Shown: in pieces, positions 30,991-35,895 of the stretch
Numbering within the stretch: position 1 is the stretch's first letter
How the letters are laid out: each line of letters opens with the position of its first letter
From: Fibrobacter sp. UWB2
GTDB taxonomy: Bacteria; Fibrobacterota; Fibrobacteria; Fibrobacterales; Fibrobacteraceae
DNA: 64,000 nucleotides
Direction: 5' to 3'
Assembly (NCBI RefSeq): GCF_002210425.1
Contig: NZ_MWQK01000002.1
Location: 558,001-622,000, forward strand
Position numbers and translations under genes: made by a program
Notes under the pieces: generated by a model
Database searches by the model: none
The model's input: only the letters and a program-made list of their open reading frames with translations
Told to the model about the DNA's origin: nothing

Positions 30991-31551
30991 TTATTTTAAG
31001 TACGTCAGCCCGCTGTAATTAAATTTAACGACATCGATGCTTGTGTCGGCCTGTTCGACCAGTTTTTGTTTCCATTCGCTCATCGGAATATCGCTTGCGA
31101 TGAGCGTGTTTAATCGTTGACCGAACAGAATTTCTTCGCGGGTGATTGTTTCGCCGTTTGATTTTGTACAGCCGTTGATGAGAGCTTCGGTGGGGTTGCT
31201 GATGAACATGGACGAGAAAAATCCGCAGAGGTTCATGCTTTTTGCAAATGACGAAGCGTAGCACCAGATCCCAATAACGCGTTTCGCTCTAATGTGACGG
31301 ACATTCTTTTCTGATATAATAAATGGATTGCCGTGGGTTTGCGGGGACAAGAGTCCGCTTGGGTAGCCATGCCCACATAATATAATAGTGTCTTTTTCGG
31401 TGAGCAACGCTTGTTCGACTTTCTTTGACCATGGACCGTTGAAACTGTTAATCTCGATGACTTTGACGTTCGGGAGATCCTTCCAGATATGCTTGAGAAC
31501 CAACGTGTCCGTGTCGCCCATGTTAGAAAAAATAACGGTAGCAGAATTCAT
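30991..31551 (-). CDS. Possible caspase-like (clan CD) cysteine protease
   Basis: A 186-residue cytoplasmic protein with no recognised family name. A hydrophobic strand runs into a His-Gly pair (TIILCGHGYPSGLL, His61). Some 36 residues later a second hydrophobic strand ends in a Cys (RVIGIWCYASSFA, Cys97). This strand-HG ... strand-C layout is the hallmark of clan CD peptidases (caspases, gingipains, CHAT). The remaining residues (GFFSSMFISNPTEALI) could form the next helix and strand. The catalytic claim is inference from two residues. It lies 100 bases downstream of a double AAA+ ATPase on the same strand, with a GGAG ribosome binding site and possibly its own promoter (TTGACA, 17 bases, GATACA). 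Confidence 0.5.
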   Translation of the reverse strand: MNSATVIFSNMGDTDTLVLKHIWKDLPNVKVIEINSFNGPWSKKVEQALLTEKDTIILCGHGYPSGLLSPQTHGNPFIISEKNVRHIRAKRVIGIWCYASSFAKSMNLCGFFSSMFISNPTEALINGCTKSNGETITREEILFGQRLNTLIASDIPMSEWKQKLVEQADTSIDVVKFNYSGLTYLK

Positions 31552-31630
31552 AACAATCTCCTTTTTTTTTCTGTATCGTTGTTTTGCTTATATTTGTCAA
31601 CTAACATAAGTGACAGAAAATGACCTTGAC

Positions 31631-31646
31631 AAAAATCGTGATTTTT
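31631..31646. promoter_or_regulatory. Perfect 7-bp inverted repeat between the AAA+ and caspase-like genes
   Basis: AAAAATC-GT-GATTTTT is a perfect palindrome with a 2-base centre, 5 bases past the AAA+ stop codon and upstream of the TTGACA-type sequence. It may be an operator or a weak terminator. Confidence 0.4.
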
Positions 31647-31650
31647 CTCT

Positions 31651-33936
31651 TTAGAACCCCATCTTTCTTTTATTATCACCACCTTCCTTCGCTTCGACTT
31701 CTTTTTCGAGAGCGTCAGCGATGCATTCGGCGGTGAGCTTGTGTGCTGGCAAGTAACGCAATTGGTTGTAGACCGCGCTGAAGTCGCCCGGGGCGAGTGT
31801 TGTCATGTGCTTGACCTGTGCGGGGCATTCGAGCTTGGGGAAGAACGAGTGCCACACGGTTTCGATTCCTTCGCGGGTAAGGTAATCGAATTTGACCTTG
31901 AGCGCGAAGCGGCGGCGGGAGGCGTTGTCGAGTCTTGCGTTGAAATTTGTGGCGGCGATGAAAATCCCGTTGAAGTTTTCCATCTGCGTCAAGAGTTCGT
32001 TGATCTGCGTCACTTCGAAATTGCGGACGGCTCCGTTGCGGTCGTTCAAGAAGCTGTCGGCTTCGTCGAAGAAGAGAATGGCTTTGCGTTCTTCGGCTTC
32101 TTTGAAAGCCGCCTTGATTTTGGCTTCGGTTTCGCCGACGTACATCCCGAGCAAGTCACTAGCGCGCTTGACGACGAGATTCCTGTTCAGCTTGCGGGCA
32201 AGGAATCGCACGAATTCAGTTTTGCCTGTTCCCGGTGCGCCGTAGAGCAGAATGTTCAGTGACTGCGCTGCGTCTTTGTCGTTTAACTTGTCCCAAATAC
32301 CGTTGAAGTTCTCGGCGATTTCAACGATGTCGTCGATGTTCTGGTCGATGTTGAGCCCGGTCAGCGTGTAGGCGGGGGCATGCGTTGTCTTTTCGCGGGT
32401 GTTGTCTCGGGCGATGTTGAGCAAGTTCGCATGGGCGTCGAGCATTTTGCGGATGACGGTGACCGCGATTCCCTTATCCTGCTTGGCGGCGGGGATGGCG
32501 TTTTGGATGGCCTTGGTGTAGCCTCCGACGGTGACGGGGTATTCCGCGGCGATGTTCTGGATTTCTTCTTCGCTAATCATGTCGGGAACGTGGAGCGCGT
32601 TCAACACGGAGTGCAGCTGCAATGCACGTTTTTCTGCGGTAAAGTTCTTGAATTCCATCGAAAAGTCGAAACGGCGGCGGGTGCTTTCTTCGACGAACGT
32701 CATGGAATTCGAAATCCAGATGATGGGCGTGTGGATGTCTTCCATGAGCATGTTGAGCATCCCTTTTTCGAGCCAGTTGAGCATCTGGTCGGCTTCATCG
32801 ACGAGGATGATGGCGTTTGTGTTTTCGCATTGCCAGGCTGCGAGTCGGAGTGTGCGCACGCGGCGGCGAAGAATCGCGTCGTACATGCCGCCTTCGCCAC
32901 CGAATCGATCTTGCTCCGCCGGCGCCTTGATGGTGTACATCTTGAGCCCGAGTTCATTGGCGAGTGCTTTTGAAAGTTCTGTCTTGCCAGTACCCGCGCG
33001 ACCGTAGAAAAGAATGTTGAGCGGCTTCTTGTAATCGTGATTGGCGAGCAAGTACACGAGCGTGTCTGCTTCCGGGCGGTCCTTGGCGAGCGTCTCGAAC
33101 GGAATCTTGGAATCTTCGGCAATGCCGATATCGCCAACTTTGGTAATCTCGTTTTGACCGTTCAGGTGGCGGACGATGTCACCGTCCAGATCCATATCGT
33201 TGTCGAGAATGCCGAGCTTGGAAATGAGCGCATCGCTGTTGGTCAGTTCTGAAAGGCGCTGCTTGGAAAGTCCGGTCGCGATGGGGATGAGTTCCAAGTC
33301 CTTTTCCGTGAAACGGGTCCTCATCCCGCAAGTCAAGCGCTTCTTGATGCCCTTGACTTCCATTTCGTCGTATTCCTGAATCCAGAGATAGAGAATGAGT
33401 TCAATTTCATCGTCATTCAGGTGGAACATTTCCTGGAGCTTTTCAACTCGCTGCATAGTGGAGTCGCTTTCGTCGGTGCCTTTGTTGAGTTCCTGCCAGG
33501 CGAATTTCATGAACAGCGGAATGACTGTGTTGAGAAAACGCTTCCATTCATTATCGGTGAAAACGTCCTTGGAGAGGTGCTTGATGTTTTCGATGCTGCG
33601 GGCGACTTCAATGTGGAAATCTTTGTGTGGGTATTTCTTGAGAAAAATTGCTCCGTGCGGACCGCAGTAGTTGCCGCGTGCAACGGCGAGCGGGGCTGAA
33701 CCATCGAGCTTGTTTTGTCTGTCAATTTGGGCGAGCGCATTGACGAGCTCCGTTTGCGTTTCAAAATCCATGAGGCCAATGACTGCTTCGGGGTTGAGGT
33801 AGTCGGGGTTGGCTTGCAAGTAACGCACCCAATATTCCAACACCTTCAAAAACGTAAACTTGGAGCTTGTACAGCCTTGCGGCGTGTTGCTCTGGAGCTT
33901 GTTGGCGATGTTTTGGAAGTATTCTTTTTTATTCAT
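31651..33936 (-). CDS. Large protein with two tandem AAA+ ATPase domains
   Basis: ATG at 33936 is preferred (GAGG 5-6 bases upstream), giving 761 residues. A helical N-terminal domain (~1-280, VLEYWVRYLQANPDYL) is followed by AAA+ module 1. This has Walker A GRAGTGKTE (~310), Walker B IILVDEADQML (~374) and STRRRFDFSMEF. Module 2 has Walker A GAPGTGKTE (~564), Walker B AILFFDEADSFL (~619) and arginine finger region NASRRRFALKV. Both modules look active and are of the classic FtsH/CDC48-like type, not signal-receptor STAND ATPases. The end is charged. The likely role is remodelling or unfolding a protein substrate. The neighbouring protease candidate suggests an unfoldase-protease pair, which is inference. 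Confidence 0.8.
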   Translation of the reverse strand: MNKKEYFQNIANKLQSNTPQGCTSSKFTFLKVLEYWVRYLQANPDYLNPEAVIGLMDFETQTELVNALAQIDRQNKLDGSAPLAVARGNYCGPHGAIFLKKYPHKDFHIEVARSIENIKHLSKDVFTDNEWKRFLNTVIPLFMKFAWQELNKGTDESDSTMQRVEKLQEMFHLNDDEIELILYLWIQEYDEMEVKGIKKRLTCGMRTRFTEKDLELIPIATGLSKQRLSELTNSDALISKLGILDNDMDLDGDIVRHLNGQNEITKVGDIGIAEDSKIPFETLAKDRPEADTLVYLLANHDYKKPLNILFYGRAGTGKTELSKALANELGLKMYTIKAPAEQDRFGGEGGMYDAILRRRVRTLRLAAWQCENTNAIILVDEADQMLNWLEKGMLNMLMEDIHTPIIWISNSMTFVEESTRRRFDFSMEFKNFTAEKRALQLHSVLNALHVPDMISEEEIQNIAAEYPVTVGGYTKAIQNAIPAAKQDKGIAVTVIRKMLDAHANLLNIARDNTREKTTHAPAYTLTGLNIDQNIDDIVEIAENFNGIWDKLNDKDAAQSLNILLYGAPGTGKTEFVRFLARKLNRNLVVKRASDLLGMYVGETEAKIKAAFKEAEERKAILFFDEADSFLNDRNGAVRNFEVTQINELLTQMENFNGIFIAATNFNARLDNASRRRFALKVKFDYLTREGIETVWHSFFPKLECPAQVKHMTTLAPGDFSAVYNQLRYLPAHKLTAECIADALEKEVEAKEGGDNKRKMGF

Positions 33937-34204
33937 GATGACCTCATATATAGCGAGAATACCGCACCTTTTATTCAAAAGGGTACAATATCCCCAAATT
34001 TTTTTTCATGGGGGCGTTAAAAAAGAATTTTATGGAAATTAAATTTTAAAAATGAAATTTAGTGTATGCATGACTTTTGCATCACGTCCCAAATATAGTA
34101 AAAATGACTTTTTTTGTCAAGAGTAAAAATGTGAGACAATCATTCGGATAATAGTTTACAATTGCAATATATAAAACGATATTAAAATAAAAGAGGTGAA
34201 TTGT

Positions 34205-34987
34205 ATGTCGGATAAAGTTGTGGTGCGCGATCTTGAGGAGTTGAGAAAGTTGGTTTATGATACCATTCTGCGCTTGGGGCCAAATTGTGACTTGAACTTT
34301 ATAGATGTATCTCCAATGGTAGATATGACGGGGCTGTTTACTTGCCCGAACCATACGTTCAATGGGAATATTAGCCAATGGGACGTATCCAATGTGATAA
34401 ATATGGATGACATGTTTGCGGGTTCTGATTTCAATGGCGATATCAGTCGTTGGAATGTGTCGAACGTAGAAAGCATGTACGGAATGTTTAAACATTCCGC
34501 ATTTAACGGTGATATATCTGAGTGGGATGTTTCAAACGTTCGGGAAATGAGTAATATGTTTGAGGGGACCGCTTTCAATGGAGATATTTCTGCATGGAAT
34601 GTTTCCCAAGTGAAGCATATGGATGAAATGTTCCGCTATTCAAAATTTAACGGGGATATCTCTAAATGGGATGTGTCGCACGTAACCTCTATGGATGAAA
34701 TGTTTTTGGGATCAGTATTTAATGGTGATATCTCAAATTGGGATGTTGGAATGTGTAGAAATTTTTGCAGTATGTTTTATCGTAGTGCCTTTTGTGGCGA
34801 TTTGGAGCGTTGGAATCTTGTTAATCCGGATCTCATGACTTTTGATATGTTGGACTGGTCGATGCTGGACTGGAATAAACGCCTCCCGCAATGGTATAGG
34901 GATATTTATGAAACTCAGGATGTTGTTGAAAATTTCGACGAAATGGACTCCGTTGGCGATGACGAGGATAAAAACCTGCCTTTTTAG
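34205..34987 (+). CDS. Cytoplasmic BspA/DUF285-type repeat protein
   Basis: A 260-residue protein with about seven tandem ~25-residue DUF285 repeats of the form FNGDIS-x-WDVSNV-xx-M-xx-MF (examples: FNGDISRWNVSNVESMYGMF, FNGDISKWDVSHVTSMDEMF). The family is usually described as surface protein, but there is no signal peptide here. The N-terminus is a short helical cap (VVVRDLEELRKLVYDTILRL), so it should be intracellular. The ATG at 34205 has GAGGTG just upstream; a GTG at 34196 is possible. The preceding ~200 bases are very AT-rich. Function unknown; the repeats may bind protein or ligand. Confidence 0.75.
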   Translation: MSDKVVVRDLEELRKLVYDTILRLGPNCDLNFIDVSPMVDMTGLFTCPNHTFNGNISQWDVSNVINMDDMFAGSDFNGDISRWNVSNVESMYGMFKHSAFNGDISEWDVSNVREMSNMFEGTAFNGDISAWNVSQVKHMDEMFRYSKFNGDISKWDVSHVTSMDEMFLGSVFNGDISNWDVGMCRNFCSMFYRSAFCGDLERWNLVNPDLMTFDMLDWSMLDWNKRLPQWYRDIYETQDVVENFDEMDSVGDDEDKNLPF

Positions 34988-35085
34988 GCTTTTGCGTCCG
35001 TTTGGGCTCAATTTTCTAGACTATGTCGCTTGAAATAGCATTTTTTTAATGTATATTAATGAAGTAAAATTTTAAGGAGATTTTT

Positions 35086-35895
35086 ATGAATTCTTTCGTT
35101 AAGGCTTCTCTGATCGCCGCGATGATGACGGCTCCGCTTATGGCTGACGAATCTTTTGGTGGCGTCGGCATCACCATTTACCAGGTGGGCGAAGGTGTTC
35201 ACGTGGCTGAAGTCATCCCGGGTACGCCTGCTGCAGAGACTAAACTCCGTGCCGGCGATGTGATTACCGCTGTTGACGGTGTAAGCCTCAAGGGCAAGGA
35301 CATCGAATTTTCCAAGGCTCAGCTCCGTGGCCAGGTCAACAAGCCGCTTGAAATCACTTACACGAGCAATGGCGAAACCTATTCTACAGTGGTTCGTCGC
35401 GCCCAGATTACCGTGAAGGACTTGGACAACAAGGCCGTCAAGAACTGGTATGGCGATAAGGAACGCGTGAACGCTCAGGAACTTGAAACATTTGCTAGCG
35501 CTACCGAAAATGACAAGCAGCTCGTCGCTGTGCTCAGCCGCGGAAACCTCATCAAGAACGATGTTTCTGTTGCCTCTGCTGATGTCAATGGCGTTTATGT
35601 GGAAAAGGCAAAGACCACTCCGAAGTTCACCAAGACGACTCCGGTCCGCTCGGGTGATGCAAGCCTCCGCCTTTTCAACCGCAAGGCTCTTTCGTTTACG
35701 CTCAAGTCTCCGGGCCGCGCAACTGTTACCATCCTGAATGCCGATGGTGAACAGGTGGCAAAGCTTGGCCTTGACAATGCCGTCGCAGGCGTGAACACGC
35801 TCAATTGGAATGGTGCTCAGGTGCCGAGCGGCCGCTATGTTATTTCCATTGACCACAATGGCGCTGTGAGCGGTGCAAACGCAGTGTTGAAGTAA
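35086..35895 (+). CDS. Exported PDZ-domain protein with C-terminal sorting-like domain
   Basis: A 269-residue protein with a signal peptide (residues 1-20, ...APLMA) and a PDZ domain at about 22-105 (VHVAEVIPGTPAAETKLRAG, DVITAVDGVSLKGKD). A spacer follows, then a C-terminal beta domain (about 195-269: VTILNADGEQVAKLGL, VPSGRYVISIDHNG). That last domain resembles FlgD-type or type IX secretion C-terminal domains, also seen in the two esterases here. No protease domain is attached, so it may act as a peptide-binding adaptor. Location at the periplasm or surface is inferred. A terminator hairpin follows. Confidence 0.78.
   Translation: MNSFVKASLIAAMMTAPLMADESFGGVGITIYQVGEGVHVAEVIPGTPAAETKLRAGDVITAVDGVSLKGKDIEFSKAQLRGQVNKPLEITYTSNGETYSTVVRRAQITVKDLDNKAVKNWYGDKERVNAQELETFASATENDKQLVAVLSRGNLIKNDVSVASADVNGVYVEKAKTTPKFTKTTPVRSGDASLRLFNRKALSFTLKSPGRATVTILNADGEQVAKLGLDNAVAGVNTLNWNGAQVPSGRYVISIDHNGAVSGANAVLK

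What the first reader, a model, noticed from the sequence alone, without database searches (positions are those of the whole stretch)
30991..33936. Double AAA+ ATPase followed by a possible caspase-like protease
The 761-residue protein has two intact AAA+ modules. A 186-residue protein downstream on the same strand has a strand-His-Gly (His61) and strand-Cys (Cys97) pair with 36-residue spacing, the clan CD dyad layout. Pairing a remodelling ATPase with a caspase-like protease is reminiscent of bacterial conflict systems. Neither protein has an obvious name, and I cannot test homology here. They may instead be unrelated neighbours.
Basis: inference. Interest (0 to 1): 0.75.

Follow-up and report, generated by a model that had tools for sequence, protein, structure and literature searches.

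The report
Huge-phage caspase-fold protease in Fibrobacter
The small protein is a confidently predicted caspase-fold protein of an undescribed family found mostly in very large bacterial viruses and probably acquired from one of them by Fibrobacter; the ATPase gene beside it is an optional neighbour rather than a fixed partner.

Summary
Both genes are real and the fold guess is right. The 186-aa protein (30991-31551, minus) has a very confident AlphaFold2 model (pLDDT 96.5). All 50 top structural matches are clan CD folds (SAVED-CHAT Z 12.5, gingipain 10.5, separase 10.0, legumain, caspases). His61 is kept in 147/148 relatives and Cys97 in 148/148 (near-copies counted). No Pfam, NCBIfam, PADLOC or PHROG family describes it. 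The unexpected part is where relatives live: about 315 viral contigs, many of 200-424 kb, the ~540-kb Lak megaphages, a few Bacteroidales, and about a fifth of Fibrobacter genomes sampled. The Fibrobacter copies form one clade nested among phage sequences. The 761-aa double-AAA+ protein is a real Cdc48-like ATPase. It lies upstream of the caspase-like gene in 6 of 12 Fibrobacter loci, separated by two opposite-strand genes in 4 of these, and is absent from 21 huge-phage records. One locus (L091) does look like an AAA-caspase operon. So the clan CD reading is supported; the two-gene conflict-system reading is not general. Most likely it is an intracellular cysteine endopeptidase used by huge phages in infection and captured by Fibrobacter. 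Activity and substrate are untested.

The parts
30991..31551 (-). 186-aa single-domain clan CD (caspase-fold) cysteine peptidase candidate, P0001
   Evidence: AF2 pLDDT 96.5/pTM 0.92; top 50 VIA matches all clan CD folds; family alignment; no known sequence family
31369..31371 (-). codon of His61 (catalytic His candidate, in GHG motif)
   Evidence: 147/148 relatives; follows strand 55-59
31261..31263 (-). codon of Cys97 (nucleophile candidate, in WC motif)
   Evidence: 148/148 relatives; follows strand 91-95
31571..31600 (-). promoter-like element TTGACA-17-GATACA upstream of the small gene, conserved in 7 of 11 aligned Fibrobacter loci although upstream genes differ
   Evidence: read directly; not listed by the consensus scan, so it rests on conservation only
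31558..31563 (-). ribosome-binding site AAGGAG of the small gene
31651..33936 (-). 761-aa double AAA+ ATPase, P0002 (Cdc48/VCP-like domain order, about 300-residue N-terminal region of unknown kind)
   Evidence: paralogues
32980..33003 (-). Walker A of AAA module 1 (GRAGTGKT)
32218..32241 (-). Walker A of AAA module 2 (GAPGTGKT)
34196..34987 (+). DUF285 (BspA-like) repeat protein, part of the same variable island, not of the protease
   Evidence: repeats

Best explanation
The 186-aa protein is a compact, single-domain cysteine endopeptidase of clan CD with a His61-Cys97 dyad, apparently cytoplasmic, with no evident signal peptide, prodomain or sensor domain. It belongs to an undescribed family that is mainly a gene of huge phages. 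Fibrobacter most likely acquired it from such a phage once, after which it was kept by selection as an accessory gene, usually with its own promoter. In the phages it most likely cuts specific host or phage proteins inside the infected cell (host take-over, counter-defence or processing of phage accessory proteins); in Fibrobacter it may have been turned to a protective or competitive use. The neighbouring double AAA+ ATPase is a Cdc48-like remodelling ATPase whose gene sits in the same variable island and may act with the protease in some lineages but is not required by the family. Shown by computation: fold, dyad conservation, distribution, phylogeny, purifying selection, lack of obligate linkage. 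Inferred: proteolysis, direction of transfer, and the infection role.
For: AF2 model pLDDT 96.5, pTM 0.92; VIA-align: SAVED-CHAT 8tl0 Z 12.5 (159 aligned, 2.9 A), gingipain RgpB 10.5, separase 10.0, legumain 9.9, caspase-1 9.7, Csx29 9.7, and all 50 entries shown are clan CD folds; Foldseek ranks SAVED-CHAT first in PDB and a viral caspase-domain protein first in BFVD. GHG/C dyad invariant or nearly so in 148 sequences. About 315 confirmed viral-contig relatives; 15 Lak megaphage records, complete ~540-kb genomes where inspected; 47 of 78 viral contigs tabulated are at least 100 kb and 24 at least 200 kb. Fibrobacter rows form one clade (98/92) nested among viral rows. dN/dS about 0.04-0.12. 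Own promoter-like element. Found in only 7 of 37 same-genus genomes, as expected of an accessory gene.
Against: No activity assay and no substrate. The superposition of His61/Cys97 on known catalytic pairs could not be inspected residue by residue. Profile-profile comparison found no significant sequence relation to the peptidase C25 set or the single CHAT sequence tested. The tree is unrooted, so phage-to-Fibrobacter transfer is the simplest reading, not proven. The infection role rests on distribution alone; neighbours in phages are mostly unrelated between loci. The size distribution of the viral collection as a whole was not measured, so enrichment in huge phages is not quantified.
Confidence: 0.62

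Rival explanations
1. The two genes form a dedicated conflict or defence module: the AAA+ ATPase senses or remodels a target and licenses the caspase-like protease, as IetA (AAA) is paired with the subtilisin-like IetS.
For: Adjacent and same strand in the window, 99 bp apart; 12 bp apart in L091; AAA upstream in 6 of 12 Fibrobacter loci with congruent divergence; P0002 matches PADLOC/NCBIfam IetA models, though only through the AAA domain; a single-AAA gene lies 0.9-4.2 kb downstream of several Bacteroidales copies.
Against: Two opposite-strand genes lie between them in 4 loci; AAA absent next to the gene in 5 Fibrobacter loci (a sixth is cut by its contig end); absent full-length from 21 huge-phage records; own promoter-like element; AAA paralogues without any shared partner. 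IetA hits are far below the curated cut-off (120 vs 510 bits).
Confidence: 0.15
2. The protease is one effector of a larger Bacteroidales-type signalling cluster (NrtR-Nudix, DUF1810, gp30.3-esterase, two phosphatases, AAA, vWA, Hsp70-like), cleaving targets on a phosphorylation or NAD-linked signal, and the Fibrobacter copy is a stray member.
For: Recurring neighbours around Bacteroidales copies.
Against: The Bacteroidales clade is a side branch; none of these neighbours recurs in Fibrobacter or Lak phages; cluster composition varies.
Confidence: 0.08
3. The protein has the clan CD fold but is not a peptidase (another thiol hydrolase, or a binding protein).
For: No sequence link to characterised peptidases; no substrate; one Bacteroidales copy has lost the His (LLGRG, L118).
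Against: Near-absolute retention of both dyad residues over very divergent sequences, which binding proteins rarely keep.
Confidence: 0.1

Closest known systems
SAVED-CHAT protease (PDB 8tl0) and other CHAT proteases (Csx29, separase)
   Same: Best structural match, Z 12.5 over 159 residues; His-then-Cys order after two neighbouring strands
   Different: No SAVED/TPR or other sensor domain, no CRISPR or cyclic-nucleotide neighbour seen; not matched by Pfam CHAT; 15% identity
Gingipain R (peptidase family C25, RgpB)
   Same: Fold, Z 10.5; GHG motif; H-C spacing 36 here, 33 in RgpB (from memory)
   Different: Secreted multidomain enzyme; hhalign to C25 domains from Fibrobacterota not significant
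Caspases, metacaspases (C14) and legumain (C13)
   Same: Fold, Z about 9-10
   Different: Smaller than legumain; no p20/p10 processing site or prodomain evident; no Pfam C14/C13 match
IetAS defence system (AAA ATPase plus subtilisin-like protease)
   Same: An AAA ATPase gene next to a protease gene
   Different: Different protease clan, two AAA modules instead of one, linkage not conserved, IetA score far below cut-off
Cdc48/VCP/VAT double AAA+ ATPases (for P0002)
   Same: Two tandem AAA modules, E about 1e-32
   Different: N-terminal region (about 1-300) matches no known N domain; conserved C-terminal RKMGF-type ending of its own

Membership tests
Clan CD cysteine peptidases (P0001) | caspase/gingipain-type alpha-beta fold | tested here: met
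   AF2 pLDDT 96.5; the 50 entries shown by VIA are all clan CD folds, best Z 12.5
Clan CD cysteine peptidases (P0001) | His (often H-G) after one strand, Cys after the next, in that order, conserved | tested here: met
   H61 147/148, C97 148/148
Clan CD cysteine peptidases (P0001) | dyad superposes on catalytic residues of a solved member | not testable with these tools
   tools return aligned ranges, not residue pairs or coordinates
Clan CD cysteine peptidases (P0001) | peptidase activity | not testable with these tools
   needs an assay
Peptidase C14 / C13 / CHAT as sequence families (P0001) | match to the family's profile | tested here: not met
   no match at E<=1 in 26 members
Peptidase C25 as a sequence family (P0001) | match to the family's profile | tested here: not met
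   one of 26 members at E 0.0067 only; hhalign to C25 set not significant
IetAS-like AAA-protease defence module (P0002+P0001) | IetA match over curated cut-off | tested here: not met
   120 vs 510 bits
IetAS-like AAA-protease defence module (P0002+P0001) | conserved gene pair | tested here: not met
   6 of 12 Fibrobacter loci, 2 directly adjacent; 0 of 21 huge-phage records
Known anti-phage defence proteins (P0001) | match to a PADLOC model | tested here: not met
   only single-member matches, Cmr5 at E 0.0023 and weaker
Cdc48-type double AAA+ ATPases (P0002) | two intact tandem AAA modules | tested here: met
Cdc48-type double AAA+ ATPases (P0002) | Cdc48 N domain and curated CDC48 cut-off | tested here: not met
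   94.5 vs 802.65 bits; N-terminal region unmatched

The most novel reading that the evidence does not exclude
Huge phages encode caspase-fold proteases that process or are aimed by short C-terminal tags: in a 415-kb phage contig ten otherwise mostly unrelated small proteins encoded around two of its three protease genes end in (EV)EFMDI, and in a related contig six to seven end in (LE)DIVL, so the protease may cut, or be recruited by, these Asp-containing tags, a phage-encoded regulated proteolysis pathway not described before.
Probability: 0.1. Interest if true: 0.9.

Novelty: new variant of a known kind. Interest (0 to 1): 0.62.

Why it matters
Prokaryotic caspase-fold proteins are usually discussed as host suicide or immunity effectors. 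Here an undescribed, minimal family is carried chiefly by huge phages, including the Lak megaphages of Prevotella, and at least one cellular lineage seems to have acquired it from them. If it is an active protease, it gives a handle on what very large phages do to their host's proteins and makes traffic of caspase-like enzymes between viruses and hosts directly testable. Four papers on Lak and other huge phages did not mention it in their main text.

Tried and rejected
First protein-only scan of genome contigs found nothing; an alignment with the phage copies was needed. Plasmids: no match. PDB by sequence: nothing credible. hhalign against peptidase C25 (first tries mis-framed; corrected) and one CHAT sequence: not significant; the CHAT alignment paired the GHG/GHS motifs but at E 0.07. 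AF2 of the AAA protein with only 4 sequences gave pLDDT 57 and was not used for fold search. A shared downstream partner for AAA paralogues: none. A constant neighbour for the phage copies: none beyond near relatives such as the Lak topoisomerase/folD block. Literature on phage caspases/metacaspases: nothing on this family. Idea that the gene is a virion maturation protease: considered less likely because Jug huge phages are reported to carry a separate prohead protease (PMC12363816), and because of the varied gene context.

Full report
What is there. The window lies in a Fibrobacter-type genome (G000:C2:558001-622000; named Fibrobacter relatives). On the minus strand a 761-aa ORF (31651-33936) is followed after 99 bp by a 186-aa ORF (30991-31551). 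The large protein has two intact AAA modules and resembles Cdc48/VCP-type double AAA+ ATPases, with an N-terminal region of about 300 residues that matches nothing. Related full-length proteins occur in several copies in many genomes of the genus. The small protein matches no Pfam, NCBIfam, PADLOC, PHROG or PDB sequence family credibly.

Fold. Using 26 relatives (A3), AlphaFold2 gives pLDDT 96.5 and pTM 0.92. Foldseek ranks the SAVED-CHAT protease first in PDB (E 1.5e-3, probability 1.00) and a Megaviridae 'caspase domain protein' first among viral models (E 1.9e-5). VIA-align gives SAVED-CHAT Z 12.5, gingipain RgpB 10.5, separase 10.0, legumain 9.9, procaspase-1 9.7, Csx29 9.7; all 50 entries shown are clan CD folds. 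Strand 55-59 runs into G60-H61-G62 and strand 91-95 into W96-C97. A profile search recovered 149 family sequences; in the 148 that cover the sites G60, G62 and C97 are invariant and H61 is kept in 147 (near-copies included). The one clear His loss, LLGRG in L118, is a Bacteroidales copy. A sequence-profile link to C25 or CHAT was not significant, so the protein is filed under the clan only.

Distribution. tblastn against phage records found 15 Lak megaphage records with a 37-38% identical copy covering 97% of the query, 184-188 aa in the genomes read, beside folD and near a type II topoisomerase gene. A scan of viral contigs with A3 confirmed 315 relatives and returned the best 79 loci. Of 78 viral contigs tabulated, 47 are at least 100 kb and 24 at least 200 kb; the collection's overall size distribution was not measured. 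Cellular copies: 7 of 37 same-genus genomes, further Fibrobacter MAGs, Bacteroidales and two odd MAG contigs, and 8 of 393 genomes of the Bacteroidales order sampled. In the maximum-likelihood tree the 12 Fibrobacter rows form one clade (98/92) inside a group otherwise made of viral rows plus the two MAG rows. The tree is unrooted, but acquisition by Fibrobacter from a huge phage is the simplest reading.

Is the ATPase a partner? In 12 Fibrobacter loci the AAA gene is upstream on the same strand in six: the window, G010, G019, G034, G036 and L091. In G010, G019, G034 and G036 two opposite-strand genes lie between. In L091 the gap is 12 bp, operon-like. In five loci the flank of at least 4.9 kb has no AAA gene; in G002 the contig ends too near to tell. 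No full-length match to P0002 occurs in 21 huge-phage records that carry the protease, and other AAA paralogues share no partner. Upstream of the small gene an element TTGAC-N17-CGATA plus AAGGAG is conserved in 7 of 11 aligned loci with different upstream genes; the consensus scan did not list it, so it rests on conservation. Both genes are under purifying selection (dN/dS about 0.04-0.12 and 0.16-0.17, dS near saturation). The pair is a recurrent neighbourhood within a variable island between conserved genes (LptD/PDZ on one side, a secreted protein on the other), possibly a functional pair in some lineages, but not a defining module.

Bacteroidales context. There the family sits among NrtR-type Nudix, DUF1810, T4 gp30.3-esterase, DSP-like and low-molecular-weight phosphatases, a single-AAA ATPase, vWA and Hsp70-like genes. 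This looks like a signalling or conflict island, but its genes are not those of the Fibrobacter or Lak loci.

A lead on substrates. In the 415-kb contig G483 (three copies of the gene), ten small ORFs (117-157 aa) within about 12 kb of two copies end in FMDI, mostly EVEFMDI; no other of 404 ORFs in the sampled parts does. Only two pairs of the ten are detectably homologous. In the related contig L127 six end in DIVL and a seventh in DIIL around its two copies. In these phages the proteases have C-terminal extensions of about 100 residues. The tags may be cleavage or docking signals; they were not seen in the other protease-bearing loci examined, so the link is a lead only.

Mechanism, with marks. 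Shown by computation: fold, dyad conservation, single-domain design, distribution, selection, lack of obligate linkage. Inferred: cysteine endopeptidase activity (about 0.85 given the above), phage-to-Fibrobacter capture (about 0.75), use against specific proteins during infection (about 0.5). Function in Fibrobacter is open.

Novelty. A new family within a known clan and an unusual home (huge phages); hence 'new variant of a known kind'. Papers on Lak, huge and Jug phages did not mention it in their main text; supplements could not be read.

Noticed in passing
L124:2044-13626 (415-kb viral contig G483), also L125: Ten small, mostly unrelated ORFs around two caspase-fold genes share the C-terminal tag (EV)EFMDI; none elsewhere among 404 ORFs sampled from the contig.
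   Followed up: partly
L127:4917-14059: Six ORFs ending in DIVL and one in DIIL around two caspase-fold genes in a related viral contig.
   Followed up: partly
L154, L173, L176 (viral contigs G492, G494, G495): Family variants of about 250 aa in which the two halves of the profile match are separated by an insertion just after the GHG region.
   Followed up: no
L051:9733-12052, L052, L053, L054: Tandem paralogous genes of about 300-410 aa with no Pfam match, on the opposite strand between AAA and protease genes in four Fibrobacter genomes.
   Followed up: no
31543-31563 (-) and 35074-35094 (+): Near-identical 21-nt inverted repeat made of the ribosome-binding site and start region of the protease gene and of the PDZ gene, bounding the AAA and DUF285 genes.
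   Followed up: no
34196-34987: DUF285 (BspA-like) gene built of 72-bp repeats; similar genes recur beside the protease in several Fibrobacter genomes.
   Followed up: no
L109:1597-10421 and L104, L100, L108, L114: Bacteroidales island with NrtR-Nudix, DUF1810, gp30.3-esterase fusion, two phosphatases, single AAA, vWA and the caspase-fold gene.
   Followed up: partly
G010:C7:98654-100925: An AAA paralogue split into two adjacent open frames of 373 and 439 codons, a possible broken copy.
   Followed up: no
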